DNA of 24,914 bases from a virus: positions 1-24,914 of the IMG/VR virus record IMGVR_UViG_3300009285_005074, one strand, 5' to 3'. Below, in pieces: positions 1 to 24,370 of the stretch. The notes under the pieces were generated by a model, which searched no databases, was not told the DNA's origin, and was given only the letters and a program-made list of their open reading frames with translations. A program made the position numbers and the translations under genes. Numbering within the stretch: the stretch's first letter is position 1; every line of letters starts with the position of its first letter.

Positions 1-4
1 AGAC

Positions 5-20
5 GGGGGGGGGGGGGGGG
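5..20. repeat. Run of 16 G
   Basis: Sixteen consecutive G lie four bases from the window start. Such a run at a contig edge may be a real homopolymer or a sequencing or assembly artefact. The sequence alone cannot decide. Confidence 0.6.
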
Positions 21-305
21 CCTAGCAAGGCTTTTCGGGAAGTGTTCCAGGTTCTGCTTTCTTGGACTGCACTTTCTTGGGAACTGGTTTCGGGGAACGC
101 ACTGCTTTACGGTCGTCCCTATCGTCATTGGAGGAAGTCATTGGCTCGTTTCCTGGATCGACACCCGTATGACAGGGGCGCGCATACACGGGGCTTTCGG
201 TTGCCCCTAGCCAAGTCGAATCTTATCGGGCGCGTTACCGGCGAATGCAGATATCAGCTATCAGCGACGACACTCTACGTCAGGCTTGCTGTGTCAACAT
301 ACGTA

Positions 306-354
306 GCCCAGCCCAGCAGGGGGGCGCCCTTGGGAGGCCCCTGCTGGGCTGGGC
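306..354. repeat. Hairpin H1, perfect 17-bp stem
   Basis: A 17-bp perfect inverted repeat (306-322 with 338-354) encloses a 15-nt loop containing GGCGCC. The arm reads GCCCAGCCCAGCAGGGG. No T-run follows on either strand, so it is not a typical intrinsic terminator. Confidence 0.85.
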
Positions 355-437
355 GTCGTCTCTGATCGTGGCGCAACACTGGTGATCTGTCTGTCTTAGT
401 GAAGCTGGCTATTCTGATCGCGGTCTTTCGGTCTAGA

Positions 438-478
438 GCGCTCCGCGCCGGTGAACGCAGTGAGCCGGCGCGGAGCGC
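438..478. repeat. Hairpin H2, 14-bp stem
   Basis: The arm GCGCTCCGCGCCGG (438-451) pairs perfectly with 465-478 around a 13-nt loop. The hairpin sits four bases upstream of the operator-like palindrome at 482-500. Confidence 0.85.
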
Positions 479-481
479 CGT

Positions 482-500
482 TGTTCACAGATAGTGAACA
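482..500. promoter_or_regulatory. Operator-like palindrome, copy 1
   Basis: TGTTCAC-AGATA-GTGAACA is a 7+7 bp perfect dyad with a 5-bp centre. The same GTTCAC-N5-GTGAAC design recurs at 22080-22096 and, with one mismatch, at 22841-22857, and a half site lies at 22875-22880. A decayed copy follows at 531-547. Repetition at three separated non-coding places suggests the binding site of a dimeric regulator, perhaps one encoded in the leftward operon. Confidence 0.6.
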
Positions 501-625
501 AGGTTCGCTGCATCAGATGCGATGATCATCGTTCACAAATGCGAAATGTTTTATGTCGGCGCACAGGCTTCAACCGTTCAACGTTACGAGGGAACAAGAC
601 GTATCGAATGCGAAATGAAGGCAAA

Positions 626-698
626 GGGCCGCGAGCGGGCAGCCCCCCGGAGCTTCGTCGTTTGCGTCGAAGCTCCGGGGGGCTGCCCGCTGCGGCCC
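626..698. repeat. Hairpin H3, about 31-bp stem
   Basis: This is the longest simple hairpin of the window. Bases 626-657 pair with 668-698 apart from one extra G on the left arm (around 633), leaving a 10-nt loop. The stem is GC-rich and includes GGGCAGCCCCCCGGAGCTTC. As RNA or extruded DNA it would be very stable. Confidence 0.85.
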
Positions 699-845
699 GG
701 CTATACAGTCAGAGGCTGGCAGTTAGAGCAAGGCCGCTTTACGCACAGGCTTTCAGTCGAACACAACATCCGGCCGCGCAGTTAGCGAAGACGCGCTAGC
801 GAATAGTCCGCCGGAGGCAGAGCTTTCGATCTCGTCATATGTAAG

Positions 846-903
846 AAACCGCTCAGCTTGCTTGGCTGCGCTGGAAGCAGTCCAAGCTTGCTGAGCGGTT
901 TTC
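846..903. repeat. Nested hairpin H4
   Basis: An outer stem AAACCGCTCAGC (846-857) pairs with 890-901. A TT/TT internal loop follows (858-859 and 888-889), then an inner stem GCTTGG/CCAAGC (860-865, 882-887), a single-T bulge (881), CTGC/GCAG (866-869, 877-880) and a 7-nt loop. The right arm ends in TTTT, so it could act as a rightward terminator. The fold is shared in detail with H5 at 983-1030 although the outer stems are unrelated. Confidence 0.8.
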
Positions 904-929
904 GTCGAAGCTCTCGGTCTTAGTTCAAA

Positions 930-945
930 AGGGCAGCTTGCTGCC
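930..945. repeat. Simple palindrome H6
   Basis: GGGCAGC-TT-GCTGCCC is a 7-bp stem around TT. It has the outer-stem plus TT layout of H4 and H5 but no inner hairpin, and so looks like an empty version of the nested elements. Confidence 0.65.
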
Positions 946-982
946 CGTCGAGTCTAGTCAAGCGTTGGGGTCTCGACGTCGA

Positions 983-1030
983 GGGCAAGCTTGTTTGGCT
1001 GCGTCGTAAGCAGTCCAAACTTGCTTGCCC
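983..1030. repeat. Nested hairpin H5
   Basis: The outer stem GGGCAAGC (983-990) pairs with 1023-1030. Inside are a TT/TT internal loop, GTTTGG/CCAAAC (993-998, 1015-1020), a one-T bulge (1014), CTGC/GCAG (999-1002, 1010-1013) and a 7-nt loop. Compared with H4 the second inner pair has changed from C-G to T-A on both arms, a compensatory change that supports a conserved structure. Confidence 0.8.
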
Positions 1031-1181
1031 GAGCGTCGTCGTCGTTCTCTGCAATGATGACTTGCTCTCCTTTAAGGCTTGCTTTCTTCTTCTCTGAGCT
1101 TACTATGATGCTGCTTTATGCTTGTATGAACCGTGTTTTTCTGCTTTATGTTTCTTTTGTGGGTATGCCGTCCCGCGATTT

Positions 1182-1218
1182 TTGACCAGTGCTTCGTCGT
1201 AGCTGTATACTCGGTTTA
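1182..1218 (+). promoter_or_regulatory. Promoter of the packaging/head genes, probably leaderless
   Basis: TTGACC (1182-1187) and TATACT (1206-1211), separated by 18 bp, match the sigma70 -35 and -10 consensus at five of six positions each. Transcription would be expected to begin about seven bases after the -10, at 1217-1219, which coincides with the ATG at 1218. No ribosome binding site is present, consistent with a leaderless message. Confidence 0.6.
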
Positions 1219-1820
1219 TGAGGAAGAATGTCCAGGGCAAGAGTCGTTTTCGGACCTATGTGGATGGTAGCAACGTCTACAAGAGGGCTGCGGTCGAGAA
1301 GTTGATGTGGGAGGCTCGGTTGGAGAACGCTAGTGACGACGAGATTGCGTCTCTGGTGGGTTTGCCGATTGCCGGTGTCCGTCGTTCTCTGACGGTGATG
1401 TATAATCGGGTTGCTACTGAGGGCGCTATTTTGGCTCGGACCTGGGCTGTCCGTCAGACGATGTTGCTTTGGACTGATGTGTATGAGGTGGCTGGGGCGC
1501 AGTGGAAGCTTACGAAGGATCCTCGTTACGCTGCTGTTATGCGTGGTGCTCTGGCTGACATCCGTAAGATTTGGGGTGTGGATGCTCCTCAGCGGGTCAT
1601 GCATGCTCACATTCATACTGGTGTGATCAACACTGAACTTGGGCGGTGCACGATTGAAGAACTCGAGCTCTTGCGGCGCCTCTGTGCCGGAAGTGACGGT
1701 GAATGTGCAATCGACGGGGAGTATTCCTCTGAAGTTGCCTCCGGAGGTGACGTTGGAGTCGGTCCGTTTGGCTCTGGCTTACCGGAGGTTTCAGGATTAC
1801 TGCCGGTTGGTGACTCCTGA
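1218..1820 (+). CDS. Putative small terminase subunit
   Basis: This 200-residue protein probably recognises the packaging site and hands DNA to the large terminase. Residues about 38-65 (DDEIASLVGLPIAGVRRSLT) look like a helix-turn-helix. The rest is helical, with an acidic, glycine-rich tail. The call rests mainly on position: it is the first gene of the rightward block, and the terminase large subunit starts inside its 3' end. The ATG at 1218 has no Shine-Dalgarno sequence, but a good promoter places the transcript start on this codon. The C-terminal 20-30 residues overlap the large-subunit frame and may be poorly conserved. It could instead be another HTH regulator, but small terminase is the best reading. 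Confidence 0.6.
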   Translation: MRKNVQGKSRFRTYVDGSNVYKRAAVEKLMWEARLENASDDEIASLVGLPIAGVRRSLTVMYNRVATEGAILARTWAVRQTMLLWTDVYEVAGAQWKLTKDPRYAAVMRGALADIRKIWGVDAPQRVMHAHIHTGVINTELGRCTIEELELLRRLCAGSDGECAIDGEYSSEVASGGDVGVGPFGSGLPEVSGLLPVGDS

Positions 1821-3228
1821 GTGGGTAGACGCGCCTCATCTGGACTATCTGTGCAGCCGCGCTGAGGCTGTTTGTGGTGGTAAGCTTCGTCGTCTGATCA
1901 TCAACATTCCTCCTGGCTATGCGAAGTCGTGGATATTCTCCCGGTGTTTGCCTTCTTGGTTCCTGATGCGATTCCCTCGTCGTGAGTTCATGCTTCTGAG
2001 TTACGGTGATGACCTGGCCACTGAGCATTCGAGCGCTGCTCGGTCGATGTTCGGTGAGTATGCTCCTCTGATGACTGGTTCGGGTATGGCTAAGGACTCG
2101 AAGAGTGTGTCCCGCTGGATGGTGGACATGGGCGATGGGAAGCGTGGCGGTGGTATGACTTCCTGTGGGATCGGTTCTTCGGTCACTGGCCGGCGGGCTG
2201 ATCTTATCGTGATCGATGATCCCTACAAGAACTGGGATGAGGCGAACTCTCAGGTTGTTCGTGAGCGGGTGTGGGATTCGTACCGGTCTGTGATCCGGTC
2301 GCGGTTGCGTCCGAACGGGTGCATTATCGTGATTCAGACGCGGTGGCACAAGGATGATCTGACCGGGCGTCTTCTGACGCATGCTGGTGGGATGAAGTGG
2401 GAACTGTGCAAACTGCCTGCTCGGGCCGTTGCCGGTGATATGCTCGGTCGGGTCCCTGGTGAAGCTTTGTGGCCTGGGATGTATGATGATATGGAGTTGC
2501 ACGAGATCGAGGGTGATATTGGTCCTATCTTCTGGGCTTGCCAGTTTCAGCAGCAGCCGGAGGAGCCTGAAGGTCGGCTGTTCAAGAAGGCGTGGTTCCG
2601 GTATTGGTATGCTGAGGGCGGTGATTACTGTCTTGAGACTGACTCTGGTCTGCTGCGTTACAGCAAGGGCGATTGCTACGTCGTCCAGACTGTGGACCCG
2701 AATCTCACTGATGCTTCGTCGAGTGATTACTTTTGTCAGGCGGCCTGGGCTCTGTGTCCGGGCGGTGAGATACTTCTTTTGGCTGTCCAGAGGGAGCGGA
2801 TCGAGACTACAGAGCACGTCGACGAGGTGGGTGCGTTTTATGACCGGCACGGCGCCGCTTGTATCTTGCTGTCGAAGCGGTCTAGTGGGATGAACCTCTT
2901 CCAGGAGTTGGAGGACCTGGGATACTCTTTAGAGGAGATTGTCGAGGATGTGTCAAAGCTTTCACGTAGTGTTGTTGTCATGCGGAAGTATCGCCGTGGT
3001 GAGGTTTACCATCTTCGGGACGCTGTCTGGATTGGTGATGTCGAGGGTGAACTGAAGGAGTTTCCTGGCGGGAAGAATGATGACTTCGTTGACAATGCTT
3101 CCGCCGTGGGCATATACTCTTCACAGATTGGCGGCGGCATCTCTGACATGGCGGTGACTGGGGGTTCGACTCGTGTGGGAATGGGATTTGGGCTTCGCGA
3201 GAATGAGTTGGGGTCGTTCCTCGGTTAG
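1753..3228 (+). CDS. terL: Terminase large subunit (packaging ATPase/nuclease)
   Basis: This is the motor that translocates and cuts phage DNA at the portal. With the start chosen here it has 491 residues. The ATPase shows a Walker A variant IPPGYAKS (about 52-59), Walker B DLIVIDDP (about 150-157) and the coupling motif IQTRWH (about 194-199). The C-terminal RNase H-like nuclease shows VQTVDPNLTDASSSDY and, near the end, GGKNDDFVDN with the last metal-binding Asp. The frame is open from a TTG at 1639, but TTG 1753 is the first start preceded by a clear ribosome binding site (GGAGGTG), so it overlaps the small subunit by 68 bp; GTG 1747 or 1684 are alternatives. Family assignment is firm, the exact start is not. 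Confidence 0.93.
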   Translation: MESVRLALAYRRFQDYCRLVTPEWVDAPHLDYLCSRAEAVCGGKLRRLIINIPPGYAKSWIFSRCLPSWFLMRFPRREFMLLSYGDDLATEHSSAARSMFGEYAPLMTGSGMAKDSKSVSRWMVDMGDGKRGGGMTSCGIGSSVTGRRADLIVIDDPYKNWDEANSQVVRERVWDSYRSVIRSRLRPNGCIIVIQTRWHKDDLTGRLLTHAGGMKWELCKLPARAVAGDMLGRVPGEALWPGMYDDMELHEIEGDIGPIFWACQFQQQPEEPEGRLFKKAWFRYWYAEGGDYCLETDSGLLRYSKGDCYVVQTVDPNLTDASSSDYFCQAAWALCPGGEILLLAVQRERIETTEHVDEVGAFYDRHGAACILLSKRSSGMNLFQELEDLGYSLEEIVEDVSKLSRSVVVMRKYRRGEVYHLRDAVWIGDVEGELKEFPGGKNDDFVDNASAVGIYSSQIGGGISDMAVTGGSTRVGMGFGLRENELGSFLG

Positions 3229-4486
3229 GACGGAGGATGTTGGCCCTGATGTCGGTATCGCTGGGTCTTTTCAGGGTTATGTGAACCCTGATGATCTGGT
3301 CGGGGCTAAGGGCTTGGAAGTCTACGAGAAGATGTGCCACAACGCTCAGGTGGCCGCGTGTCTGTCGATCAAGCGTTCGAGTGTTCTTGCCCGTGGTTGG
3401 GATATCTCGTCGAAGAAGTCTGACGGCGCCCTGGGCAAGGAGATCTCGGAGTTTTGCACTGACGTGTTCGAGTGGATGGAGGGAACTGTTTTCGAGTTCC
3501 TGGAGGGTGTCTGTGACGCCCTGGCTAAGGGTTACTCTGTTCAGTCGATGGTGTGGGATGTCATCGAACGCGGGAAGTGGGCTGGGAAGATGGCTCCCCG
3601 GTATATCAGCCCGAAGGATCCTGAGGATTGGCAGTTTGAGGTAGACGAGTACAAGCGTGTTCTGCGGTTGATTCACGTTCCGTCCGACGCGAGGTATCCT
3701 CGGTCGGATTTCGTTTTGTACGTCCACCGCGGCCGGTATGGGAACCCCTACGGGGAGTCTGATCTCCGGAACGCTTATCGTAACTGGTGGTCTGTGGACT
3801 TCTTAGAGCGGTTCTGGAATATCTACATGGAGAAGTTCGGGTCGCCGACCGTTAAGGGCAGTTACAGGCGGGGTACAACGGCGGCGGCTAAGCAGCTTTT
3901 CCTAACTGCTCTGAGTTCCGTCCAGTCGAAGTCGGCTGTGGTGTTTCCTGACGATATGAAGGTTGAGCTCTTGGAGACGATCCGGCAGGGTGAAGCCGGG
4001 TTCCGTCTCGCCGTGGAGTATCACAACAAGCAGATCGCGAAGGCGATTCTGAATCAGACTCTCATCACTGACGATGGGTCCGGGGTGGGGTCTTTCGCCC
4101 TGGCGAAGGTGCATCTGGATGTCTTGAGGATGGGTCTTCGTGGTCTGAAGCAAGGCCTGGAGGAGTCTGTTGTTCGTGAGCAGGTTCTTCGTCGTCTTGT
4201 CGAGGTGAACTATGGATATGATGCTCCCGTGCCTCTATTTTCTCTGGGTCCTCTGGAGGATCGCGAGATTGAGCCTCTTTCGAGGGCGGCGAAGAACATT
4301 GTGGACTCGCAGATTGTGGCGGCTGATGATCCGTGGTTGCGGGAGTTCCTGGGTATCGTAGGCGCCGGCAAGGCTCCGGACCGGGTTGTCGGTACTCCTG
4401 GGTCGGCGTCCGGGGCGGTTCCGTCCGTGAGTCGGGCTCGGGTGGACGGTGATACGAATGACGGCGTTGTGAGAGTGGGGGCATAA
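3203..4486 (+). CDS. Portal protein, Mu gp29-like (DUF935)
   Basis: This protein forms the dodecameric ring at the capsid vertex through which DNA enters and leaves. The sequence has the DUF935 (phage Mu gp29) layout: an N-terminal block with YEKMCHNAQVAACLSIKRSSVL, a middle block with YVHRGRYGNPYGESDLRNAY and WNIYMEKFGSPTVKGSY, and the helical EYHNKQIAKAILNQTL region. At 427 residues it is somewhat shorter than Mu gp29, having a short low-complexity Gly/Ser/Val tail. The ATG at 3203 was chosen over the GTG at 3173; both overlap the terminase end. The Mu F-like head gene that usually follows the portal is absent here. Confidence 0.88.
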   Translation: MSWGRSSVRTEDVGPDVGIAGSFQGYVNPDDLVGAKGLEVYEKMCHNAQVAACLSIKRSSVLARGWDISSKKSDGALGKEISEFCTDVFEWMEGTVFEFLEGVCDALAKGYSVQSMVWDVIERGKWAGKMAPRYISPKDPEDWQFEVDEYKRVLRLIHVPSDARYPRSDFVLYVHRGRYGNPYGESDLRNAYRNWWSVDFLERFWNIYMEKFGSPTVKGSYRRGTTAAAKQLFLTALSSVQSKSAVVFPDDMKVELLETIRQGEAGFRLAVEYHNKQIAKAILNQTLITDDGSGVGSFALAKVHLDVLRMGLRGLKQGLEESVVREQVLRRLVEVNYGYDAPVPLFSLGPLEDREIEPLSRAAKNIVDSQIVAADDPWLREFLGIVGAGKAPDRVVGTPGSASGAVPSVSRARVDGDTNDGVVRVGA

Positions 4487-4941
4487 TGGCTACATCGATC
4501 ACGCACGAGGATGTAAAGCCGAGAGTTGGGGTCCCGAGTGCTACCACGACGTATGACACTGAGATGGATACTGTCTGCACGGCCGTGGCGGCCGGTGTCG
4601 ATGCGGCTGTCGATGCGGCTTACCTGACCTCGGCGGCGGCTCTGGTTAAGCTGGCCGCAATCGATATCGCGACCGGGACTCTGATTGTTGGGATTTTCAA
4701 TCGCCCCGGTTATGCTGAGCAGATGATAGCCGCGGGCGTCACGCTTGGCGGTTTGGATAAAGACGGGGCGAAGGAGCTTATCAAGCAGGGATGGGCCACT
4801 CTGGCCCCATACCGTCCGGACAAGGCAACCGCTACAGCAGCGGCCGAGGCGGCTAAGACTCAGGTGGCCGATTCCGCGGAATGCGACTTGTCCAGTGATG
4901 ATATGATCTTCGGTAGTGACTCGGCGGAGTACGACTATTGA
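4486..4941 (+). CDS. Putative head-tail connector/adaptor
   Basis: This 151-residue protein starts with an ATG overlapping the portal stop (TAATG), implying coupled translation. It has an early SITHEDVKPRVG segment, helices rich in Ala and Val (about 30-65), then AAIDIATGTLIVGIFNRPGY and LIKQGWATLAPY, and an acidic tail. This plan resembles small all-helical connector proteins (gp6-like, or Mu gp36/DUF1320-like) that dock under the portal. The assignment is based on pattern and on position just after the portal, not on a search. If right, the particle has at least a neck to which a tail could attach. Confidence 0.45.
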   Translation: MATSITHEDVKPRVGVPSATTTYDTEMDTVCTAVAAGVDAAVDAAYLTSAAALVKLAAIDIATGTLIVGIFNRPGYAEQMIAAGVTLGGLDKDGAKELIKQGWATLAPYRPDKATATAAAEAAKTQVADSAECDLSSDDMIFGSDSAEYDY

Positions 4942-5267
4942 GCCATGCTACTGATCGTTTCGACGCTGGCGTTGATCGCCTGGGTGAGTCGATCACCTGG
5001 ACGAAGTTGAATGGCTCCGCTGGGTCTTTCGCTCACAACGGCATCGTTCGGCAAGCGGATGGCGGTACTTTGAACGTTTATCTGGATGCTATTGAACAGG
5101 CTGCTTTGACGCGTCCGGCTCTGGCTGTGATCTGTAAGAGTGGGACTTCGGTGATCGTGAACGACACTTTCACTCGTGACTCTGTGAACTACATCTGTGT
5201 AAAGGTCGGGATTCATCGTCTGGCTAATGAGATCATCGGTCGCACGGCGATTATGAATACGGTTTGA
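4938..5267 (+). CDS. Putative head-completion or stopper protein
   Basis: This 109-residue protein has its TTG start overlapping the upstream stop codon (ATTGA). It is predicted to be mostly beta: SITWTKLNGSAGSFAHNGIV, then an ALAVICKSGTSVIVNDTF segment and the ending RLANEIIGRTAIM. Small beta-barrel proteins at this position commonly close the portal channel or join head and tail (SPP1 gp16-like, HK97 head-closure type). Function is inferred from size, fold impression and neighbours. There is no enzyme motif. Confidence 0.4.
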   Translation: MSHATDRFDAGVDRLGESITWTKLNGSAGSFAHNGIVRQADGGTLNVYLDAIEQAALTRPALAVICKSGTSVIVNDTFTRDSVNYICVKVGIHRLANEIIGRTAIMNTV

Positions 5268-5274
5268 GGTGGCA

Positions 5275-5775
5275 ATGGTCGATCAGGGTGTCCCTCATTG
5301 GATAGTGGCGGACTGTGCAAACAGGAGTTTGCGGAAGTTGAAGCCGTCGTTCGTGATTCTTCATCACACAGGTGGGCCGGGATCGGGGTCCCTGGAGTGG
5401 CTCCGTACTTCTCGGTCGAATGTGTCCGCTGATTTTCTGATCATGGCCAGCGGTCAGATATACAAGCTCAATCCTCAGCTTTCGGAGTTCTACACGTGGC
5501 ATGCCGGGGTGTCTCGGTATGGCAAGTGCCTGGACCTGAACCCGTCGTCGTTTGGCATCGAGTTGGAGCACGTCCCTGGCGAAGAGTGGCGGGCTGGGCA
5601 GATCGATGCGTGTGTAGCGGTTGTGGCGTTCCTTGTGTGGAAGTTCTCGATCCCGGTAATGAATGTTCTGGGTCATAAGCAGGTGGCCTGGCCGAGGGGT
5701 CGTAAGACTGACCCGGAGGGGTTCCCCTGGGCGGAGTTTCGTCTTGCGTTGAAATCTCGTTTGGGGGTGAAGTAG
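5275..5775 (+). CDS. N-acetylmuramoyl-L-alanine amidase (endolysin)
   Basis: This zinc amidase of the Amidase_2/PGRP family cleaves the amide bond between muramic acid and the stem peptide. The 166-residue protein is essentially one catalytic domain. FVILHHTGG (about 27-35) carries the first zinc His, TWHAG the second conserved His (about 76), FGIELE the conserved Glu region, VLGHKQVAWP the next zinc His (about 134), and GRKTDPEGF the Lys and Asp ligands (about 144-146). There is no signal peptide, so it needs a holin, and the next gene fits that role. ATG 5275 follows GAGGTGG; a GTG at 5269 lies inside that site. Its place within the head genes is unusual for an endolysin, so a virion-associated role is possible. 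Confidence 0.88.
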   Translation: MVDQGVPHWIVADCANRSLRKLKPSFVILHHTGGPGSGSLEWLRTSRSNVSADFLIMASGQIYKLNPQLSEFYTWHAGVSRYGKCLDLNPSSFGIELEHVPGEEWRAGQIDACVAVVAFLVWKFSIPVMNVLGHKQVAWPRGRKTDPEGFPWAEFRLALKSRLGVK

Positions 5776-6077
5776 TGGCAGGTGGACTTGGTATCGAGGG
5801 TGCTGTGATTGCGGGTGTAGGCGGCTTTGTCGGAATGGCCGGTGCGCTGGGGTATGGGTTCAAGCTGATGGTCGACATTCTCGGCAAGCAGCTTACGGTT
5901 CAGAATACTGTGATTTCTGGGCTGGAGAGTGGTATCCAGGGCAAGCTGGATGATCATATCACTTCGTGCGCTGGGTGTCGGTCCGCGATTGATGCGGTTG
6001 GCAAGTCTGCTAAGGATAGTGCGGATCGTGTGGTGAAGTCGGTAAGCGATAGAGATCGGAGGTCTGAGGGTGCCTGA
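5775..6077 (+). CDS. Holin-like small membrane protein
   Basis: This 100-residue protein has one hydrophobic Gly/Ala-rich segment (about 7-29, GIEGAVIAGVGGFVGMAGAL) near the N-terminus, followed by an amphipathic region, a CAGC motif (about 65-68) and a charged tail ending in RDRRSEG. The GTG start overlaps the last base of the amidase stop codon (TAGTG), so the two are probably translated together. A single-span protein next to an amidase suggests a holin or a lysis accessory protein. A structural membrane protein is an alternative. Confidence 0.5.
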   Translation: MAGGLGIEGAVIAGVGGFVGMAGALGYGFKLMVDILGKQLTVQNTVISGLESGIQGKLDDHITSCAGCRSAIDAVGKSAKDSADRVVKSVSDRDRRSEGA

Positions 6078-6987
6078 AGTAGTGGTTCGTGAAGCTAAGC
6101 TCTTCGAGTGCGGCGTTTACCGTGATCGGGAGATATCGTTCACTGAGGCTGATCTCGACGCCATTGTTGCCGGGTTCAAGTCAGACGGTGAGCGTGTTCA
6201 TGTTCGTGTTCAGCATACCCGGACACCGTTCGATGGTATGATGGGTCACGTCGAGAGCGTGTGGCGTGCGGGCAAGGATCTGATGGGTCGTCTTGTGTTC
6301 CCTGAAGTGTTTTGGAAGTTCCTTGAGGCTATGGGAACGAAGAAGCTCAGTGTTGGTTTCGACTATCGACAGCGCAGATTGCGAGAAGTTTCTATAGTGG
6401 ACAACCCTCGCATCTTGACAGCCCGGATATTCGGTGATAGTATCGGTGTCGATGGTCTGTTGGTTTTCGAGGATGGTTTCGGGTCTGACGAAGAAGGGGG
6501 AGGTAGTAGGATGCCTGAAGTGTTGACGCCGGAGTTCCGGCAACTGTTGGAAAGGGAGCGGGAAGCTGGCCGTGTTGAGGGTATGGCCACTGCTGAGACG
6601 CAGTTCAGCGAGCGGATCGGTCCTGTGGCTCAGGAGAATGCGGCTTTGAAGCGCAAGATGGCTTCGGAGCGGGCTTCTGGTATCATGCTGGGCTGGAAGG
6701 CTGAGGGTCGGCTGATGCCGGCTGCTGAGAAGTACGCTGAGGCTCTGCTCGTGGACGGCGCCGCGGAAGTGACGTTCTCCGACGGCGGGCATATGAGCGC
6801 TGCTGAGGCGTTCGTTCAGTTCATGACTCACCAGGGACCGGTTCTCACGACTGTCCGTGGGTCAGGGACTGCGGCTGAGCGGCCTGGCGAGGTGTCGGCG
6901 ACTGAGAAGCGTGTTTACGACGCGCTTGGGGTGACTGCTGAGGAAGTCTGGGAAGCTGAGTCTGCGATTGCGGCTCCGACCGCGTAA
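6070..6987 (+). CDS. Prohead protease with C-terminal scaffold (Mu gpI-like)
   Basis: This 305-residue assembly protease cleaves scaffold and itself inside the prohead. The N-terminal half shows the U35/S78 pattern: VRVQHTRTPFDGMMGHVESV with the catalytic His (about 49), KKLSVGFDY with the catalytic Ser (about 94) and REVSIVDNPRILTARI, the typical strand after the active site. Residues from about 148 onward are charged and coiled-coil-like, as expected of scaffold. The GTG start overlaps the upstream gene by 8 bp. An in-frame internal start at 6511 with a strong ribosome binding site would make the scaffold alone, as Z does within I in phage Mu. Confidence 0.8.
   Translation: MPEVVVREAKLFECGVYRDREISFTEADLDAIVAGFKSDGERVHVRVQHTRTPFDGMMGHVESVWRAGKDLMGRLVFPEVFWKFLEAMGTKKLSVGFDYRQRRLREVSIVDNPRILTARIFGDSIGVDGLLVFEDGFGSDEEGGGSRMPEVLTPEFRQLLEREREAGRVEGMATAETQFSERIGPVAQENAALKRKMASERASGIMLGWKAEGRLMPAAEKYAEALLVDGAAEVTFSDGGHMSAAEAFVQFMTHQGPVLTTVRGSGTAAERPGEVSATEKRVYDALGVTAEEVWEAESAIAAPTA
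6511..6987 (+). CDS. Nested scaffold protein (Mu Z-like, internal start)
   Basis: ATG 6511 is in frame with the protease gene and is preceded by GGGGGAGGTAG, one of the best ribosome binding sites in the block. The 158-residue product keeps the coiled-coil part (FRQLLEREREAGRVEG, ENAALKRKMASERASG) and lacks the protease. It begins MPEVLT, echoing the MPEVVV start of the full protein. Free scaffold made from an internal start is established for Mu I/Z and lambda C/Nu3. Its existence here is inferred from the start signal. Confidence 0.6.
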   Translation: MPEVLTPEFRQLLEREREAGRVEGMATAETQFSERIGPVAQENAALKRKMASERASGIMLGWKAEGRLMPAAEKYAEALLVDGAAEVTFSDGGHMSAAEAFVQFMTHQGPVLTTVRGSGTAAERPGEVSATEKRVYDALGVTAEEVWEAESAIAAPTA

Positions 6988-7040
6988 TCGCGATCGGCGC
7001 GGTGTAGCGGCATTTTGTGAGAGGTTTGGGAGGGGTTGCG
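6983..7040 (+). promoter_or_regulatory. Leader element upstream of decoration gene
   Basis: The intergenic sequence runs CGTAATCGCG, CGGCGCG, TGTAGC, TTTTGTG and a purine-rich ribosome binding site (GGGAGGGG). The same words in the same order lie before the major capsid gene at 7582-7651. Shared leaders before the two most abundant virion proteins could set mRNA stability or translation. Confidence 0.4.
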
Positions 7041-7586
7041 ATGGATGGAGGAATGCTTGGTTGGGTGGTAATGCTGGTCGCCCTGGTATGGGCTATGGGA
7101 GCGTACGGCGCTTCGGCGGCGGCGTTCGACATTGAGAGGATGGAGGGCCAGAAGATCAGCTATAAGATGGGCGCCGAGAAGATCTACAAGGGCACCATGT
7201 GTATGATCAACGCGGCTGGTTACTGTGTCCAGATATCGGATACGGCGACGGGCGATAGTTTTGCTGGTGTGGCTGCGGAAACCGTCGATAACAGTGCGGG
7301 CAGCGCCGGTGATAAGCGAATCGACGTTTGGCGGACCGGCGTCTTCAGGTTCAAGCATGCTGGTGCGGCGATCACGGACATGGGTCTTATGGCCTATGCG
7401 TCTCTTGGTGTCGCGGATGCCGGCCAGACTGTGAAGTCCGCGACGGAGGGAACGCATGCAATGATGGTCGGCAAGATCGTGGGTATGAGCGCGGATTCTT
7501 CGGCGACTCGCTGCGATGTCCTCATCGACGGTTGCACGGCTCTGGCGTCCGCTGAGACTGCCGTGATTGGTGGTTGGACGACGTAA
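7041..7586 (+). CDS. Capsid decoration protein, DUF2190-like, with hydrophobic N-terminus
   Basis: From about residue 34 the sequence resembles the DUF2190 capsid decoration/stabilisation family: MEGQKISYKMGAEKIYKGTM, DSFAGVAAETVDN, IDVWRTGVFRFKHAGAAITDMG and VGKIVGMSADSSATRCDVLIDG. Its place directly before the capsid gene fits. Unexpectedly the first 28 residues read like a signal peptide or membrane anchor (MLGWVVMLVALVWAMGAYGA, then ASAAAF). ATG 7041 is well placed after GGGAGGGG; the GTG at 7017 would lengthen it by eight residues, and the internal ATG at 7140 has no usable ribosome binding site. The hydrophobic start is therefore probably real. Confidence 0.7.
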   Translation: MDGGMLGWVVMLVALVWAMGAYGASAAAFDIERMEGQKISYKMGAEKIYKGTMCMINAAGYCVQISDTATGDSFAGVAAETVDNSAGSAGDKRIDVWRTGVFRFKHAGAAITDMGLMAYASLGVADAGQTVKSATEGTHAMMVGKIVGMSADSSATRCDVLIDGCTALASAETAVIGGWTT

Positions 7587-7651
7587 TCGCGCTACCCGGT
7601 TTCGCCGGCGCGTTCATGTAGCTGTTTTGTGTTGGGGAGGAGGGTAACCTA
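7582..7651 (+). promoter_or_regulatory. Leader element upstream of major capsid gene
   Basis: The element repeats the words seen at 6983-7040 (CGTAATCGCG, CGGCGCG, TGTAGC, TTTTGTG) and then has GGGGAGGAGGG, a strong ribosome binding site eight bases from the GTG start at 7652. Confidence 0.4.
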
Positions 7652-8608
7652 GTGGGCGGAAATCTGTATACTGCGGGGTCAGGGATGGGCGATTTGCCTG
7701 TCGGTCCCCTGACGAAGGGTCTCAAGGCGCTTTTCATGAAAGCGTACAAGGAGTATTCCGAGAAGAGTGTCGTGCTGCGAGTCTGCACGATCACCGACTC
7801 GACGTCGGACTCTGAGGATTACTCCTGGCTCGGGGCGGTTCCGAAGATCCGCGAGTTCCTGGCGGAACGCCGGGCGAAGTCGCTTGCGAACTTCAATTAC
7901 AACCTGAAGAACCAAACCTGGGAGAACACGATCGGGGTCAAGCGCTCCGATCTGGAGGATAACAAGCTTGGCATGCTTCGGACACGCATTCGCCAGCTTG
8001 CCCAGGAGGCGGTTCGCTACAAGGAAGAGAAGGTCATGTCGTTCCTGACCTCGGCTCTCGGTTCTGACGCGGCGCCGTATCTGTGCTACGACGGCACGGG
8101 CCTTATCGACACCGCTCACACCGCGACTTCTGAGGAGGGTGGGGCGACTCAGTCGAACAGGGCCGGGACGGCGCTGGCCATCGCTACTCTGTGGACGGCG
8201 ATCGGGGCTATGCGTGGTTTCAAGGATGACACCGGGCGCATCCTGGGGATGGTGCCGGACACTCTGCTTGTGGAGCCGTGTCTCGAGCAGACCGCATTCG
8301 AGCTCTTGGAACCGATCAGTGCTTCTGCGCAGTCCGCTGCTCTGAAGCACTTGAACATCGAGCCGGTTGTGAGCTCCTATCTCTATTCCACGGCAACGGC
8401 GGCGAACGGGAATTGGTTCTTGCTCGACTCCCAGAGCGAGGTCAAGGGCGTCATCTTGCAGGAACGGACTTCGGTGGAGTTTGGTTCCCTTGAGAAGGAC
8501 TCGGATAGCGGTTTCTTGCGTGACGAGTTCCTTTATGGCACTAGGGCCCGGTGGGCAGTGGGTGCGGGCTTCTGGCCGGCGATCTACGGCAATGCCGGCG
8601 CTGGCTAG
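7652..8608 (+). CDS. Major capsid protein, Mu gpT-like
   Basis: This is the shell subunit, with 318 residues against about 305 in Mu gpT. The N-terminal half shows the family signature: YSWLGAVPKIREFLAERRAK, then LKNQTWENTIGVKRSDLEDN (the gpT phrase that precedes the helical spine) and LAQEAVRYKEEKVMSFLTSALG. The C-terminal half ends with RARWAVGAGFWPAIYGNAG. It probably adopts the HK97 fold. The GTG start follows GGGGAGGAGGG. Together with the DUF935 portal and the I/Z-like protease it shows that the head module is of Mu type throughout. A terminator-like hairpin follows 41 bp after the stop. Confidence 0.88.
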   Translation: MGGNLYTAGSGMGDLPVGPLTKGLKALFMKAYKEYSEKSVVLRVCTITDSTSDSEDYSWLGAVPKIREFLAERRAKSLANFNYNLKNQTWENTIGVKRSDLEDNKLGMLRTRIRQLAQEAVRYKEEKVMSFLTSALGSDAAPYLCYDGTGLIDTAHTATSEEGGATQSNRAGTALAIATLWTAIGAMRGFKDDTGRILGMVPDTLLVEPCLEQTAFELLEPISASAQSAALKHLNIEPVVSSYLYSTATAANGNWFLLDSQSEVKGVILQERTSVEFGSLEKDSDSGFLRDEFLYGTRARWAVGAGFWPAIYGNAGAG

Positions 8609-8649
8609 GGTTAGCAGAATGGCGAAAGCGTCGTTCGGGTGGGGCTGGT

Positions 8650-8683
8650 GGCCCGGGCCGGTATTCCCGGTCCGGGCCTCTTT
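8650..8683 (+). terminator. Terminator/attenuator after the capsid gene
   Basis: GGCCCGGGCCGG (8650-8661) pairs with CCGGTCCGGGCC (8667-8678), 12 bp with one G-T pair, around the loop TATTC, followed by TCTTTC. It probably reduces transcription downstream of the highly expressed capsid gene while letting some through to the surface genes. Confidence 0.65.
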
Positions 8684-8699
8684 CATGTGAGGAGGGACT

Positions 8700-9332
8700 A
8701 TGGAAAAGGGTCAGTTGCTATGGAGTGGGTCGGTTGCTTGGACGGTGAACGAAGACGCGGTAAAGACTCTCGATGTGCCGTTGCTTCCGATCGGAGACGA
8801 GGAACAATTTCTGCTGTCGGTTCGGAACGGCTCCTCCGTTGTCGATCTGACGGTCGACGTTGGGTTTCTCTCTGAGGTCTATCCGTCTTCTACGACGCCC
8901 AGGGTTGAGACGGCTTGTACGACTGTCGACGTTGGGGATAAGGTCACTTGTGTTGGGCATGGCTTGGTTGTTGGCGATTGTATTGTCTTCGGGGATACTG
9001 AGGGCGGCGTCACGGTGGGTACGAAGTACTACGTGATCGCGGTTGCTGACGCGGACAATTTCCAGTTCGCGACCGCGCGCGGCGCCGCGGCGTTCACCGT
9101 GGATGCGACAGCCGGAGCGAATACGTTTACGGTGACTGAGGAGTTCTTCGTGTTGACCTCTATCTCCGTTCCGAAGTTCGCGGCGGGAACGACTGTGGCG
9201 GCGGTTGCCGGTCTGGTGTGCCGGATCATATCGGGATGGCCGTATGGTCCGGATGGCGGTCGGTTGTCGTTCATGAAGTCCGCGGCGACGGCCGCGATTT
9301 TCGGCGCGTATGCTGAGATTCGTCGGTTGTGA
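8700..9332 (+). CDS. Beta-rich structural protein, function unknown
   Basis: This 210-residue protein has an ATG preceded by GAGGAGG. Residues 1-60 look like a small beta domain. The middle holds a module starting at GDKVTCVGHGLVVGDCIVFG and continuing through GGVTVGTKYYVIAVADADNF, a beta pattern common in phage neck, tail and fibre proteins. The C-terminus (YGPDGGRLSFMKSAATAAIFG) is conserved-looking but unassigned. Position right after the capsid gene suggests a virion protein, perhaps a neck or spike base. No tail-tube or tape-measure feature is seen in it. Confidence 0.55.
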   Translation: MEKGQLLWSGSVAWTVNEDAVKTLDVPLLPIGDEEQFLLSVRNGSSVVDLTVDVGFLSEVYPSSTTPRVETACTTVDVGDKVTCVGHGLVVGDCIVFGDTEGGVTVGTKYYVIAVADADNFQFATARGAAAFTVDATAGANTFTVTEEFFVLTSISVPKFAAGTTVAAVAGLVCRIISGWPYGPDGGRLSFMKSAATAAIFGAYAEIRRL

Positions 9333-9340
9333 GGCATGGT

Positions 9341-10597
9341 ATGGAGGTGATCCCTGCTGTTGGTCGTGCCGTGCGGTCAGCTCGTGTGCACGCTGGCAGT
9401 AGCTATGGTCGCACGTTGTGTAACCTTGCTCAGCAGCATTACAGCGTCGATGTGGATGTCGACTGTGGTACGGCTGGGAAGTGGTTCGCGGCGGGCGGGG
9501 GAACGATCGGTTGGGACACGTCCAACTATTATGCGGGGTCTACTCAATCGGTCACGGTTACTGGTGGACCGACTCCGATCTTGCAGTATCGGACTCCTGC
9601 GGCGCCCCTGAACCTGGCTGGCAAGTATTTGCTCGTTCGTCTTCAGAGGAACGACGCGGTGCCGGACGCGACCTATGGCAGCTATACGGTGAAGTTCTAC
9701 AGTGAGTCGAACTACTCGAAGGTGTCTTCGGTATTCACTCTGTGGGGCGTTGGCCGTCACTACAATGCTTGTGATAGCTGTCAGGGTTGGTTTGAGTTCT
9801 GTATGCCTATGGCTGATGTGGGCCTGGGAACGCTGACTGACTTCACGGCAATCACGATGATCACTGTTCAGTCTAACCTGGCGGCGGGTGGTGAGGCTGA
9901 TTTCGGCTTGCATCGATTACAGGTCTTGTCGGCGGTTGGGTCGTATTACTGCATACGCATAGATTGGGTATCTCCGTTGAGGGTAGACGCGGTCGCGGCG
10001 TACGCTAAAGCGGCTGGTGTCAGGTTGACTATCGGGGCATGGATGGCGTCTCTTGACGGTGGAAGCGGTTTGTCGACGTGGGATGTTCGGCGGCTTATCG
10101 ATAGTGGGCATGAAATCGTGGTCTATGGTAATGCTCCTGTAAGTCGGACGTGGGACGATTGGACTCCGGCGCAGAAGTTGGAGTATATCCCTGCTCGGTT
10201 GAAGGATATGTGCAGGCAAGTGGGGATGGATTGGAACGGGGTGTTTTTTGTTCCGGGCGGGAACGGTGTGTCGGTGTGGGATCGGGTTAACCTGGTTGGT
10301 CCGGGGATTCTGTCGTGTATCAGTGGGACTAGTACGACGGTTGTGGGTCTGTATATGCTGCAGGTTCCTGGGTTTCGTCAATTGGATTGGACTGGGTTCA
10401 TAAACGGCGGGGCGGATGGTTTGATCCCGAGTTGGCTTCCTGGGAAGATAACTGAGTGTGAGTCGAACGGTGGATGCGTGGTTCTGGGCGCTCACATATC
10501 GGACGACGATCATGTAGCGAGCCTGGAGGCTGCGATAGATGCGCTGGCGGCTTCGGCGTTGGCTTGCAGGACGTTCGGGGATTTTGTGAGTCAGTGA
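9341..10597 (+). CDS. Spike-like protein: beta domain plus degenerate polysaccharide-deacetylase domain
   Basis: This protein has 418 residues. The N-terminal half (to about 200) reads as a beta-sandwich with carbohydrate-binding character (GKWFAAGGGTIGWDTSNYYA, YGSYTVKFYSESNYSK). From about 205 it follows the NodB/polysaccharide deacetylase order: YYCIRIDWVSPLRVDAVAAY at the first strand, RLTIGAWMASLDG, then RRLIDSGHEIVVYGNAP and a late GVFFVPGGNGVSVWDRVN. Canonical enzymes have an Asp-Asp pair at the first strand and a His-x3-His metal site. Here one Asp and one His (of GHEI) remain, so it may bind glycans without cutting them. A receptor-binding spike is likely. ATG 9341 follows TGAGG; GTG 9329 overlaps the previous stop. 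Confidence 0.6.
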   Translation: MEVIPAVGRAVRSARVHAGSSYGRTLCNLAQQHYSVDVDVDCGTAGKWFAAGGGTIGWDTSNYYAGSTQSVTVTGGPTPILQYRTPAAPLNLAGKYLLVRLQRNDAVPDATYGSYTVKFYSESNYSKVSSVFTLWGVGRHYNACDSCQGWFEFCMPMADVGLGTLTDFTAITMITVQSNLAAGGEADFGLHRLQVLSAVGSYYCIRIDWVSPLRVDAVAAYAKAAGVRLTIGAWMASLDGGSGLSTWDVRRLIDSGHEIVVYGNAPVSRTWDDWTPAQKLEYIPARLKDMCRQVGMDWNGVFFVPGGNGVSVWDRVNLVGPGILSCISGTSTTVVGLYMLQVPGFRQLDWTGFINGGADGLIPSWLPGKITECESNGGCVVLGAHISDDDHVASLEAAIDALAASALACRTFGDFVSQ

Positions 10598-10606
10598 GGT
10601 GTGGCC

Positions 10607-11356
10607 GTGGAGAAGAATGCTGTCGGTCGTGGCAGGGAATGGGATTCGGTTGTCCAGCCGGTGGGGCTTGGCCGTGGGTGCGTTCTGCGGGTCGATATGG
10701 AGTCTGCGGGGTCGGCTCGCGTTCTCGATGGTGTGGGTGTGTCCCATGGGACGGTTACGGGTGCTGTGCGGACCGTGGAGAGGTCGGGGCTTTCGCGTTT
10801 CTTCGACGGCACGGATGATCTGATCGACTGCGGTAAGGCCAGTGTTCTGGGTCTTTTGAACACTCTGACGATTGAGGCGTGGGTCAGGCCTAATATTGCG
10901 TATGCGAGCTCTGATGCCACCGTTCGGTATCGGGCTATTGTCTGCAAGGCTTCGGGCGGCGCCGCTTCCGGCGTGTCTTATCTCATGGACTGGTACGGGG
11001 ATCAGACTGGCCGGACTCTGCGGCTTACCGTGAGTGACGGGGTGGCGCTCAAGAGTCATACGTCGACGGGGTGTGATATGGCTCAGTCTTGGACTCATGT
11101 GGTTGGGACTGTGGAGTACCCGGGCCAGATGAAGTTGTACAAGAACGGGGCTCTGTTGTCCGCTATCGCGAGCACGAAGGGTTGCCAGTTGGTTGACACT
11201 GAAGTCCATATCGGTCGAAATTTCAGGTTGGGGAATACGACGTATACTTGGTCCGGTTGGATCGGGGATGTAGGGTTGTATTCGGTGGCGTTGAGCGCGG
11301 GGGAGATCCGGGATCGGTTCCGTCGTGGCGCTCGGAAGTATGGGGTGGCGTGGTAG
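10607..11356 (+). CDS. LamG/concanavalin-like surface protein
   Basis: This 249-residue protein has a single LamG-type beta-sandwich. The markers are SRFFDGTDDLIDCGKASVLG, LTIEAWVRPNIA, a central WTHVVGTVEYPGQMKLYKNG and the late WSGWIGDVGLYSVALSAGEI followed by RDRFRRGARKYG. Such domains bind glycans or form the head-binding part of fibres. As the last gene before the terminator, and after the deacetylase-like protein, it is probably exposed on the particle and helps host recognition. GTG 10607 is preceded by TGAGGT at good spacing; GTG 10601 is two residues longer. Confidence 0.7.
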   Translation: MEKNAVGRGREWDSVVQPVGLGRGCVLRVDMESAGSARVLDGVGVSHGTVTGAVRTVERSGLSRFFDGTDDLIDCGKASVLGLLNTLTIEAWVRPNIAYASSDATVRYRAIVCKASGGAASGVSYLMDWYGDQTGRTLRLTVSDGVALKSHTSTGCDMAQSWTHVVGTVEYPGQMKLYKNGALLSAIASTKGCQLVDTEVHIGRNFRLGNTTYTWSGWIGDVGLYSVALSAGEIRDRFRRGARKYGVAW

Positions 11357-11387
11357 GTTTGTGTCGGTGGGTGGTCTCCTTGTTGTT

Positions 11388-11422
11388 GCCCGGGTACCTG
11401 TAGTGGTGCCCGGGCTTCTTTT
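11388..11422 (+). terminator. Terminator of the rightward block
   Basis: GCCCGGGTACC (11388-11398) pairs with GGTGCCCGGGC (11405-11415), 11 bp with one T-G pair, around the loop TGTAGT, followed by TTCTTTT. It lies 31 bp after the LamG stop and just before the end of the convergent leftward operon. Confidence 0.8.
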
Positions 11423-11873: not shown

Positions 11874-13472
11874 TTACATCTTGCAAGTGCTGGAGCTGGC
11901 CGGCTGGCCGATTATGACGCCTTGCCTGGCTCTTGTGACCGCGACATACATGAGCCTCTGAATCGAGTCTCGGTGAATCCCCGACCATTGGTGGAGTCCC
12001 TGGGGACTGAGGTCCGGGAATACGATTACTACGTCGGCTTCGCCTCCTTTCACGCTGTGAATCGTTCCAATGACGATCTCCGGTGGTATGGCCCTGGCGT
12101 CCAGGAAGTCGGCGCCGCGGGTCCGGGCTATGGTGAGCGGGTATGCGGCCTTGGCCCTGGCGGCGTTGTTGACCAGGTTGGCTTCCCACCAGTCCAGGTC
12201 GCAGGCTAAGATCGCGTTGGCGGCGTCGTCTTCGAACAGCGAAAATAGCACGTCGAGATTGACGTGTGTGATCTCTTCTAGCTTAGATTTCATCCCGTGT
12301 CGGAAGACGCCTTTGGCCTGGAGAACGGACGCCGCGGCTTTGAGTTGGGTTGGCGTCCACCAGGCTTTGTCCTTGGTTCTGACCGATAGGAACGATGACA
12401 CCCGCTCGGCGTATGTGGTTCCCTGGGTAAGCCGAAGTGGGTTCCAGTCTGCTCGGATCATCCGGTATGGGTTGTGGAACGGGATGCCCTTGTCTCTGAG
12501 GGCGTTCTTTATCGGGTCGACCATATACGAACACGACGCTATGACCATTGCCGTCATGCCGCGGTCGATGATCTTGTCGAGCGCTCGGAGTATGCCGAGC
12601 GCATCCTGGAATGTGAACGGGGCTCTGGAGATGAATCCTGGGTCTGCTGACTGCCGGGGCAGGAAGTCCTTTGGAATCCGCTTTGGCACTTTCGATATCC
12701 ACGTGACGGCATATTCCCAGACGTTGAATGGGAGGCGGTGAGATTGTTCGAGGACAATGTCGTCGTCTGTGAGGTCTCCTCCGGCGAATGCTTCTGGCGT
12801 GGCTCCGGCGAACTGATAGATACACTGGTCGTCGTCCCCGCATAGTATCAGGTTGTCCGCGGCCGCTGCCCAATGTTTGACCACGCTCATCTGAAGGGCT
12901 GTGCAATCCTGGGCTTCGTCGACAAGGATAAGCCGTGGCTTGCCCGGCGCTGCCTGGGAACTCTCCAGTGCGGCTTCGAGCATGTCGGTGAAGTCTATGC
13001 CTCCTTCTACTGCCTTCCACCTGTTCCACGCCTCGGCGTATGCACGGGCACGGCTGGGCCATTTCTCCACGGGAATCATACGATTACGGAGGATGGTTAC
13101 GAGCGCGTGGATTTCATCCCCCTGAGTCTGGGAGTCCCCATACTCGAGCCCTGATCCCATATCCTTGCTCTGGGGCAGCGACAGGCTATACTCGGGCGCG
13201 TAGGCGTTCCATAGCTTCACTGAAGCGGGCTTGGATTCCAGAATCGGCGGGCGCCCTATCAGTTCATAGGCGGCCTTGTGAATCGTTCCCACCTGATTCT
13301 CCGGGATGGTCGGCGCCCGCGAAGCTATCTCCTCAGCGGCCGCATTTGTGTAGCTGCAGATCATCACTGCGCCGGGGCCGATGTCCTCTGCGGCCTGGCT
13401 CGCTATCGCGGTGAGGGTGGCGGTCTTACCGGTTCCGGGTGGGCCGAATATGCGTTTGGTGTTCAAGCTCAA
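11874..13472 (-). CDS. UvrD/Rep-like superfamily 1 DNA helicase
   Basis: This ATP-dependent 3'-5' type helicase of 532 residues probably assists replication or recombination of the phage genome. Motifs: Walker A FGPPGTGKT (about 9-17), Ia CSYTNAAAEE (about 39-48), II VDEAQD (about 184-189), III GDDDQCIYQFAGA (about 212-224), IV-V VIGTIHSVKGGEADVV (about 475-490) and VI YVAVTRAR (about 516-523). The central 2B-like part is reduced compared with UvrD, which is near 720 residues. The start is a TTG behind ACGAGG; a second TTG two codons on is equally possible. A 149-bp gap with a hairpin separates it from the upstream gene, one of the wider gaps within the operon. Confidence 0.9.
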   Translation of the reverse strand: MSLNTKRIFGPPGTGKTATLTAIASQAAEDIGPGAVMICSYTNAAAEEIASRAPTIPENQVGTIHKAAYELIGRPPILESKPASVKLWNAYAPEYSLSLPQSKDMGSGLEYGDSQTQGDEIHALVTILRNRMIPVEKWPSRARAYAEAWNRWKAVEGGIDFTDMLEAALESSQAAPGKPRLILVDEAQDCTALQMSVVKHWAAAADNLILCGDDDQCIYQFAGATPEAFAGGDLTDDDIVLEQSHRLPFNVWEYAVTWISKVPKRIPKDFLPRQSADPGFISRAPFTFQDALGILRALDKIIDRGMTAMVIASCSYMVDPIKNALRDKGIPFHNPYRMIRADWNPLRLTQGTTYAERVSSFLSVRTKDKAWWTPTQLKAAASVLQAKGVFRHGMKSKLEEITHVNLDVLFSLFEDDAANAILACDLDWWEANLVNNAARAKAAYPLTIARTRGADFLDARAIPPEIVIGTIHSVKGGEADVVIVFPDLSPQGLHQWSGIHRDSIQRLMYVAVTRARQGVIIGQPASSSTCKM

Positions 13473-20471: not shown

Positions 20472-20707
20472 CTTGTCTGTCCTTTCTGTCGACGGGAAGC
20501 AGTCGTTGTGTGCGTGTGCACACTCCGCACTGGCTGAAGACCGCGCTTTTCTAGCCAATTGCGGACGGTGTGGCGGCTGACTCCGAACTCGCGGGCAAGG
20601 TCGCATTGTGATCGGCCCGCGATGAGCTGGGAGTGCAGGTATAGTCGGAGGTCGGACGGGAAGCATTGTGCTTCGGCCTGGGCTTCCCGGTCCCCTAGTT
20701 GGCGCAT
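20468..20707 (-). CDS. Small helix-turn-helix protein
   Basis: This 79-residue protein is a single HTH: SQCDLAREFGVSRHTVRNWL (about 33-52), of the Trp-repressor/transposase-like or HTH_23/28 kind, flanked by a basic tail (SRRQKGQTR). It may be a transcription regulator binding the repeated palindromes of the control region or a replication helper. It overlaps the nuclease gene by 13 bp and the next gene by 4 bp. Confidence 0.7.
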   Translation of the reverse strand: MRQLGDREAQAEAQCFPSDLRLYLHSQLIAGRSQCDLAREFGVSRHTVRNWLEKRGLQPVRSVHTHTTTASRRQKGQTR

Positions 20708-21027: not shown

Positions 21028-21029
21028 GG

Positions 21030-24271: not shown

Positions 24272-24333
24272 CTCGCATGTATATAAAGGCGTTTTTCAAA
24301 AGAGTCGGTTGACCTGTGCATGCTGGGTTGCTT

Positions 24334-24366: not shown

Positions 24367-24370
24367 TCCG

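What the first reader, a model, noticed from the sequence alone, without database searches (positions are those of the whole stretch)
1218..11422. Complete Mu-type head and packaging set with no recognisable tail genes
Terminase, DUF935 portal, two connector candidates, I/Z-like protease/scaffold, DUF2190-like decoration and gpT-like capsid protein are all present. The block then gives only three surface-type proteins and stops at a strong terminator facing a convergent operon. No tail tube, sheath, tape measure or baseplate is seen anywhere in the 24.9 kb. This would fit a tail-less or very short-tailed particle, or a satellite that makes its own heads and borrows tails, as described for capsid-forming PICIs. 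Unlike those islands, it has no integrase and brings its own replication genes.
Basis: partly seen in the sequence, partly recalled or inferred. Interest (0 to 1): 0.75.

Follow-up and report, generated by a model that had tools for sequence, protein, structure and literature searches.

The report
Complete phage-like genome lacking tail genes
This is a nearly complete 25-kb virus-like genome that encodes a full DNA-filled head, packaging motor, lysis enzyme and replication helicases but no recognisable tail genes; a closed circular relative has the same layout, so it probably borrows tails from another phage or uses a very unusual tail-less particle.

Summary
The window is an entire IMG/VR record. 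Profile searches confirm a Mu-type head and packaging block: TerL, DUF935 portal, Mu-I-like protease, PHROG-1731 decoration protein and gpT capsid, plus an amidase. It ends at a terminator facing a convergent replication operon.

The decisive new evidence is relative IMGVR_3300037487_001646 (TerL and capsid 68% identical). Its ends overlap by 152 bases at 99%, so it closes as a circle of about 23.4 kb. It has the same head block and replication operon and no tail module. The window's two ends are neighbours there, separated only by hairpin-rich noncoding DNA and an IS3 element. So "tail genes beyond the contig ends" is excluded for the relative and very unlikely for the window.

As a control, the same search recognises most tail genes of the related Meiothermus phage MMP7.

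The 109-aa protein at 4938 is predicted to fold like head-closure (stopper) proteins of long-tailed phages, so the gene set stops just before tail assembly. Best reading: a head-building, integrase-free satellite docking helper tails, working like cf-PICIs, cf-PISP and MulchRoom. Its own lysis, replication and adhesin genes keep an autonomous tail-less virus open. Neither mechanism has been shown.

The parts
1218..1820 (+). putative small terminase (TerS), 200 aa
   Evidence: Position upstream of TerL; homologue in closed relative G001 9029-9580. PHROG 645 at 6e-7 carries an unrelated label.
1639..3228 (+). large terminase
   Evidence: PHROG 38 2.6e-83, Terminase_6N above cut-off; 68% and 83% identical relatives
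3173..4486 (+). portal, Mu type (DUF935)
   Evidence: Portal_Mu PF06074 1.5e-65
4486..4941 (+). putative head-tail adaptor, 151 aa (264 aa in G001 with a helical-looking insertion)
   Evidence: Position between portal and stopper; conserved in L008 and G001; no family hit; no match to MMP7/Riverbug gp36: inferred only
4938..5267 (+). predicted head-closure (stopper) protein, 109 aa
   Evidence: AlphaFold2 pLDDT 62; top VIA matches are mainly necks/stoppers: T1 Z 8.4, FCWL1 8.4, phiCD508 7.5, Pam3 7.4, lambda 6.6, SPP1 5.4
5269..5775 (+). N-acetylmuramoyl-L-alanine amidase (lysin)
   Evidence: Amidase_2 4.4e-21
5775..6077 (+). small protein with apparent membrane segment, possible holin
   Evidence: Sequence reading and position; conserved in G001 and L008
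6070..6987 (+). Mu-I-like protease/scaffold
   Evidence: PHROG 976 1.1e-10; PF10123 below cut-off
7017..7586 (+). head decoration protein
   Evidence: PHROG 1731 8.4e-17
7652..8608 (+). major capsid protein, Mu gpT type
   Evidence: PF10124 3.4e-53, PHROG 371 2.6e-60
8700..9332 (+). conserved beta-rich virion protein with a tail-fibre-type module
   Evidence: PHROG 9370 7e-6 at residues 74-138; 67% identical in G001
9329..10597 (+). accessory surface protein, 422 aa, possibly polysaccharide-deacetylase-like; absent from G001
   Evidence: No convincing family or PDB hit; motif reading only; absent in G001
10601..11356 (+). LamG-domain surface protein
   Evidence: Laminin_G_3 2.3e-19; most diverged structural gene, 37%
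11388..11415 (+). terminator at end of the late operon
   Evidence: 11-pair stem then T-rich run
11874..13472 (-). UvrD-type helicase
   Evidence: PF00580 8e-23; 33-35% identical to Thermus/Meiothermus phage helicases
15834..17477 (-). primase/polymerase-like protein
   Evidence: PHROG 2478 3e-13
17550..18464 (-). conserved early protein (PHROG 23155)
   Evidence: 1.5e-40; homologue in MMP7
18511..19944 (-). SNF2-type helicase
   Evidence: PHROG 62 5.8e-93
20695..21036 (-). endonuclease/resolvase-like protein (VRR-NUC-like by reading)
   Evidence: PHROG 93 2.9e-10
24047..24914 (.). right part of the noncoding junction: AATAACG motifs, TATA-like site, hairpin 24371-24416
1..1217 (.). left part of the noncoding junction: hairpins at 301-359, 438-478, 634-691, 846-901
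   Evidence: equivalent junction in G001 at 5564-9028

Best explanation
The window is an essentially complete genome (about 25 kb, circular map) of a head-building, tail-less satellite. It makes its own Mu-type procapsid, packages its own DNA and closes the filled head with a stopper of the kind that long-tailed phages use to receive a pre-made tail. It encodes nothing past that step. The mature head then joins a tail supplied by a helper phage in the same cell, giving a chimeric particle. Shown here: head gene content, closed tail-less relative, purifying selection on the head genes, and detection controls. Predicted: the stopper fold. Inferred: docking of helper tails, the helper itself, and maintenance as an integrase-free episome or virulent element.
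For: 1) The closed relative G001 (152-base terminal overlap at 99.3%) carries the same head block and replication operon, with the window's two ends joined by noncoding DNA plus an IS3 element. 2) Control: PHROGs recognises sheath, tape measure, baseplate and tail-completion proteins in MMP7, and none of 31 tail/connector proteins of MMP7 and Riverbug matches any open reading frame of the window or G001 at E<=1, while 15 of 16 Riverbug proteins match MMP7. 3) Protein 4938: most top structural matches are stoppers or necks of sipho- and myophages, with a gene transfer agent and the SaPI1 neck also listed, so the gene set ends at the head/tail assembly boundary. 4) Genes of both genomes are intact at 37-68% amino-acid identity, with third codon positions 31-52% identical against 57-82% at second positions, so this is not a decayed phage. 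5) Precedents exist: MulchRoom has a helper-length tail attributed to its helper (PMC10690885); cf-PISP TG54 is episomal, integrase-free and tail-less (PMC13230959).
Against: No helper phage was found. The element carries its own amidase, a possible holin, two helicases and a primase-like protein; the head-forming satellites described in the passages read here are not reported to bring a lysin. It also carries fast-evolving LamG and accessory surface proteins, which look like its own adhesins and would be unnecessary if the whole tail is borrowed. The stopper model has only moderate confidence (pLDDT 62, alignment of 3), and individual Z scores of 5-8 are not conclusive.
Confidence: 0.5

Rival explanations
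1. An autonomous virus with no tail or a minimal stubby one. Portal, adaptor (4486) and stopper (4938) form the whole exit channel, the conserved 8700 protein and the LamG protein sit on it or on the capsid as adhesins, and the amidase helps entry or lysis.
For: Own lysin, replication helicases, primase-like protein and adhesin-like genes; 8700 and LamG are conserved after the capsid gene in both genomes. A low-confidence model of 8700 best matches a T4 gp9 domain (fibre connector), Z 5.6. No helper seen.
Against: The 4938 protein resembles stoppers of long-tailed phages. No nozzle, knob or ejection-protein family was hit. I know of no established tail-less bacterial virus with an HK97-type head (own knowledge).
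Confidence: 0.28
2. A split genome: the tail genes are on a second packaged segment or on a co-maintained replicon or prophage of the same lineage, so the pair is a multipartite phage rather than parasite and host.
For: Would explain a lysis and replication set without a tail set, and the same gap in two diverged genomes.
Against: No contig sharing close homologues of the head or early genes but carrying tails was found in viral contigs, though those scans reach close relatives only. No multipartite tailed phage is established (own knowledge).
Confidence: 0.08
3. The tail genes are present but too diverged to be recognised (for example 8700, 9329 or early-operon proteins of unknown function).
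For: Several proteins have no family hit; 8700 has a tail-fibre-type module.
Against: Only two to three genes follow the capsid gene, none is long enough for a normal tape measure (the longest, 422 aa, is absent from the relative), and the early unknowns are small and lie in the replication operon.
Confidence: 0.09
4. The contig is a fragment and the tail genes lie outside it.
For: The window itself is linear, without terminal repeat.
Against: The relative closes as a circle with the two window ends adjacent; the junction is 2085 bases in the window against about 2.3 kb in the relative without its IS3.
Confidence: 0.04

Closest known systems
Capsid-forming PICIs (cf-PICIs; Alqurainy et al. 2023, as described in PMC10690885 and PMC13230959)
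   Same: Full head, packaging and head-tail connector set, no tail genes; tails taken from helpers.
   Different: cf-PICIs are integrated islands with an HNH endonuclease and PF05065 capsids; here no integrase, no HNH hit, Mu-type portal/protease/capsid, an amidase, two helicases, 23-25 kb circular map.
cf-PISP TG54, Vibrio satellite-plasmid (PMC13230959)
   Same: Circular, no integrase, own head genes, closure protein, no tail genes.
   Different: 15.8 kb, parA/repA, HNH, Stl-like regulator, PF05065 capsid, Vibrio only; none of these genes were hit here.
MulchRoom and MiniFlayer, Streptomyces satellites (PMC10690885)
   Same: Own TerS, TerL, portal, capsid and adapter; MulchRoom's tail is attributed to its helper; MiniFlayer lacks a lysogeny module and has a fibre-type adsorption module.
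   Different: They lack primases and key replication genes; here UvrD and SNF2 helicases, a primase-like protein and an amidase are present. No sequence comparison was made here.
Thermus phage Riverbug and Meiothermus phages MMP7/MMP17 (33-34 kb; Riverbug and MMP7 are annotated with contractile-tail genes)
   Same: Mu-like heads (DUF935 portal in MMP7); related UvrD helicase (33-35%), early protein 17550 (about 30% in MMP7) and portal (MMP7).
   Different: Riverbug and MMP7 have a tail block of about 11 kb; Riverbug also has an integrase. The window has neither.

Membership tests
cf-PICI | Complete head and packaging genes with head-tail connectors | tested here: met
   (stopper by predicted fold; adaptor inferred)
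cf-PICI | No tail genes | tested here: met
   and closed relative
cf-PICI | HK97-type capsid PF05065 related to satellite capsids | tested here: not met
   Capsid hits PF10124 (Mu gpT) and PF25209, not PF05065
cf-PICI | Integrase / chromosomal island | tested here: not met
   No integrase hit in any scanned protein; relative closes as a circle
cf-PICI | HNH endonuclease next to terminases | tested here: not met
   No HNH hit
cf-PICI | Mobilised by a helper phage through its tails | not testable with these tools
   Needs culture, microscopy or co-abundance data
cf-PISP satellite-plasmid | parA/repA maintenance genes | tested here: not met
   No ParA or RepA family above cut-off; RepB_primase only at 0.13
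Mu-like tailed phage (Caudoviricetes with full virion set) | Mu-type head genes | tested here: met
Mu-like tailed phage (Caudoviricetes with full virion set) | Tail tube, tape measure, baseplate | tested here: not met
   with control
Podovirus with short tail | Nozzle/knob and ejection proteins | tested here: inconclusive
   No family hit; 8700 model unreliable; 4486, 9329 and 10601 not folded

The most novel reading that the evidence does not exclude
A lineage of bacterial viruses with an HK97-type, Mu-like head that replicates, lyses and spreads on its own without any tail, entering cells through portal, stopper and capsid-borne adhesins.
Probability: 0.18. Interest if true: 0.92.

Novelty: new variant of a known kind. 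Interest (0 to 1): 0.62.

Why it matters
Head-building satellites that borrow only tails were recognised recently, from integrated islands, Streptomyces satellites and Vibrio plasmids. This would be an independent lineage with a Mu-type head, its own lysis and replication genes and no integrase, so it sits between phage and satellite. It makes a concrete question testable: can a genome with a head, a stopper and adhesins but no tail spread alone, and if not, what tail does it take? Its gene list appears to end at the head/tail assembly boundary.

Tried and rejected
Fragment explanation: disfavoured by the closed relative. Host by genome scan: the capsid alignment found nothing; TerL gave only 31-37% relatives in Aneurinibacillus, candidate division TA06 and Acidobacteriota, so the host stays unknown. 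Thermus/Meiothermus phages are the best matches for the UvrD helicase, and the relative's IS3 is closest to a Deinococcus plasmid (57%); this hints at Deinococcota but does not show it. Other relatives: scans with 8700, TerL, stopper, UvrD and portal returned no close relative beyond the same two contigs; the early protein 17550 found none. Structure of 8700: pLDDT 44; VIA and Foldseek searches inconclusive. PDB sequence searches with 8700, 4938 and 9329 gave nothing useful. Adaptor identity of 4486 against MMP7/Riverbug gp36: no match. Terminal overlap of the window itself: none. Phage and plasmid collections for TerL, portal and capsid: only distant matches.

Full report
WHAT WAS CHECKED. 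The window is a complete IMG/VR virus record of 24,914 bases. Its rightward block 1218-11356 has TerL, DUF935 portal, amidase, Mu-I-like protease, PHROG-1731 decoration protein and gpT capsid, all by profile search. TerS is named from position, and two small connector candidates follow the portal. After the capsid come three genes: a 210-aa beta-rich protein with a tail-fibre-type module, a 422-aa protein without a convincing family hit, and a LamG protein. A terminator follows at 11388-11415. The leftward operon carries UvrD and SNF2 helicases, a primase-like protein, a conserved PHROG-23155 protein and an endonuclease-like protein. No integrase, replicative DNA polymerase or tail-shaft gene was hit.

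IS IT TRUNCATED? Scans with TerL found two close relatives: L008 (4.3 kb, TerL 83% identical) and L009/G001 (23,581 bases, TerL 68%). G001 starts and ends inside the SNF2 helicase gene, and its first 152 bases repeat at its end at 99.3% identity. It therefore closes to a circle of about 23.4 kb; the inexact repeat may be why it is not classed as circular (inference). In G001 the replication operon, a noncoding junction with an IS3 element, and the head block follow one another. The window's two ends are thus adjacent in the relative. The junction measures 2085 bases in the window and about 2.3 kb in G001 after subtracting an IS of about 1.1 kb. No room for a tail module remains.

IS THE ABSENCE A DETECTION FAILURE? 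The best matches to the UvrD helicase are the 33-34 kb phages Riverbug (Thermus) and MMP7/MMP17 (Meiothermus); the portal and early protein 17550 also match MMP7. Riverbug and MMP7 are annotated with a head, a contractile-tail set and a tail block of about 11 kb. The same PHROG scan finds sheath, tape measure, baseplate and tail-completion proteins in MMP7. None of their 31 tail and connector proteins matches any reading frame of the window or G001 at E<=1, while 15 of the 16 Riverbug proteins match MMP7 at E<1e-7. The remaining unknown proteins are small, and none in the late block is both of tape-measure length and conserved.

IS IT DECAYED? No. Synteny and reading frames persist at 37-68% amino-acid identity. 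Third codon positions (31-52% identical) are more diverged than second positions (57-82%) in all 15 genes compared. TerS and TerL overlap, which raises their third-position identity.

WHERE DOES THE GENE SET STOP? The 109-aa protein after the putative adaptor was folded from three sequences (pLDDT 62). Foldseek gives weak E-values, but its viral matches include head-closure and head-tail joining proteins. VIA-align ranks T1 stopper (Z 8.4), FCWL1 interface (8.4), phiCD508 neck (7.5), Pam3 neck (7.4), T4 neck, lambda and R4C connectors (6.6), then SPP1 and gene-transfer-agent connectors. Single scores are modest, but nearly all of the top rows are of one kind. In such phages the stopper completes the head, and a separately built tail with its terminator is then joined (established knowledge). 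The element's genes end at this boundary.

MECHANISM. Most likely the element packages its own DNA into its own head, closes it, and joins helper-made tails (confidence 0.5). MulchRoom shows helper-length tails attributed to its helper (PMC10690885), and cf-PISP TG54 is a circular, integrase-free, tail-less head-former (PMC13230959). Against this stand the element's amidase, replication genes and variable surface proteins; LamG is its most diverged structural protein and 9329 is missing from the relative. These suit an autonomous particle or, as in MiniFlayer, attachment to a helper. The autonomous rival gets 0.28, and the other readings share the rest.

FILING. It works like a tail-borrowing satellite but is not a member of cf-PICI or cf-PISP by the features tested: capsid family, integrase, HNH and plasmid genes were not met. 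Hence it is filed as a new variant of a known kind, with an autonomous tail-less virus as the most novel reading not excluded.

Noticed in passing
window 1-1217 and 24047-24914; L015 (G001) 5564-9028: The divergent noncoding junction is rich in long hairpins (arms of 14-27 bases) in both genomes, with different sequences; possible origin, packaging or regulatory region.
   Followed up: partly
window 24000-24260; L015 5590-5950: AATAACG/CGTTATT motifs are concentrated in the junction of both genomes (window 3 against 2 in the 11-times-longer rest; G001 7 against 1), as operator or origin iterons would be.
   Followed up: partly
L015 about 6434-7555: An IS3-family element with two transposase frames sits in the G001 junction; the nearest plasmid match is from Deinococcus wulumuqiensis (57%).
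   Followed up: partly
L015 7682-7720 and window 13464-13502: A 39-base stretch around the window's UvrD start is found, 90% identical and in the opposite orientation, in the G001 junction rather than near G001's UvrD gene.
   Followed up: no
L009 12218-13012 versus window 4486-4941: The putative adaptor of G001 carries a helical-looking insertion of about 113-117 residues absent from the window and L008.
   Followed up: no
window 23242-23535; L009 4952-5251: A conserved CxxCxxCC (zinc- or iron-chelating, PF03692) small protein on the opposite strand of the early region.
   Followed up: no
window 21033-21572; L009 2236-2787: A protein with a C-terminal ribbon-helix-helix-like stretch, weak match to mobilisation protein NikA (0.0012, below cut-off); candidate regulator of the junction.
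   Followed up: no
window 1-25: The contig starts with AGAC followed by a run of G, possibly a sequencing or assembly artefact at the contig end.
   Followed up: no
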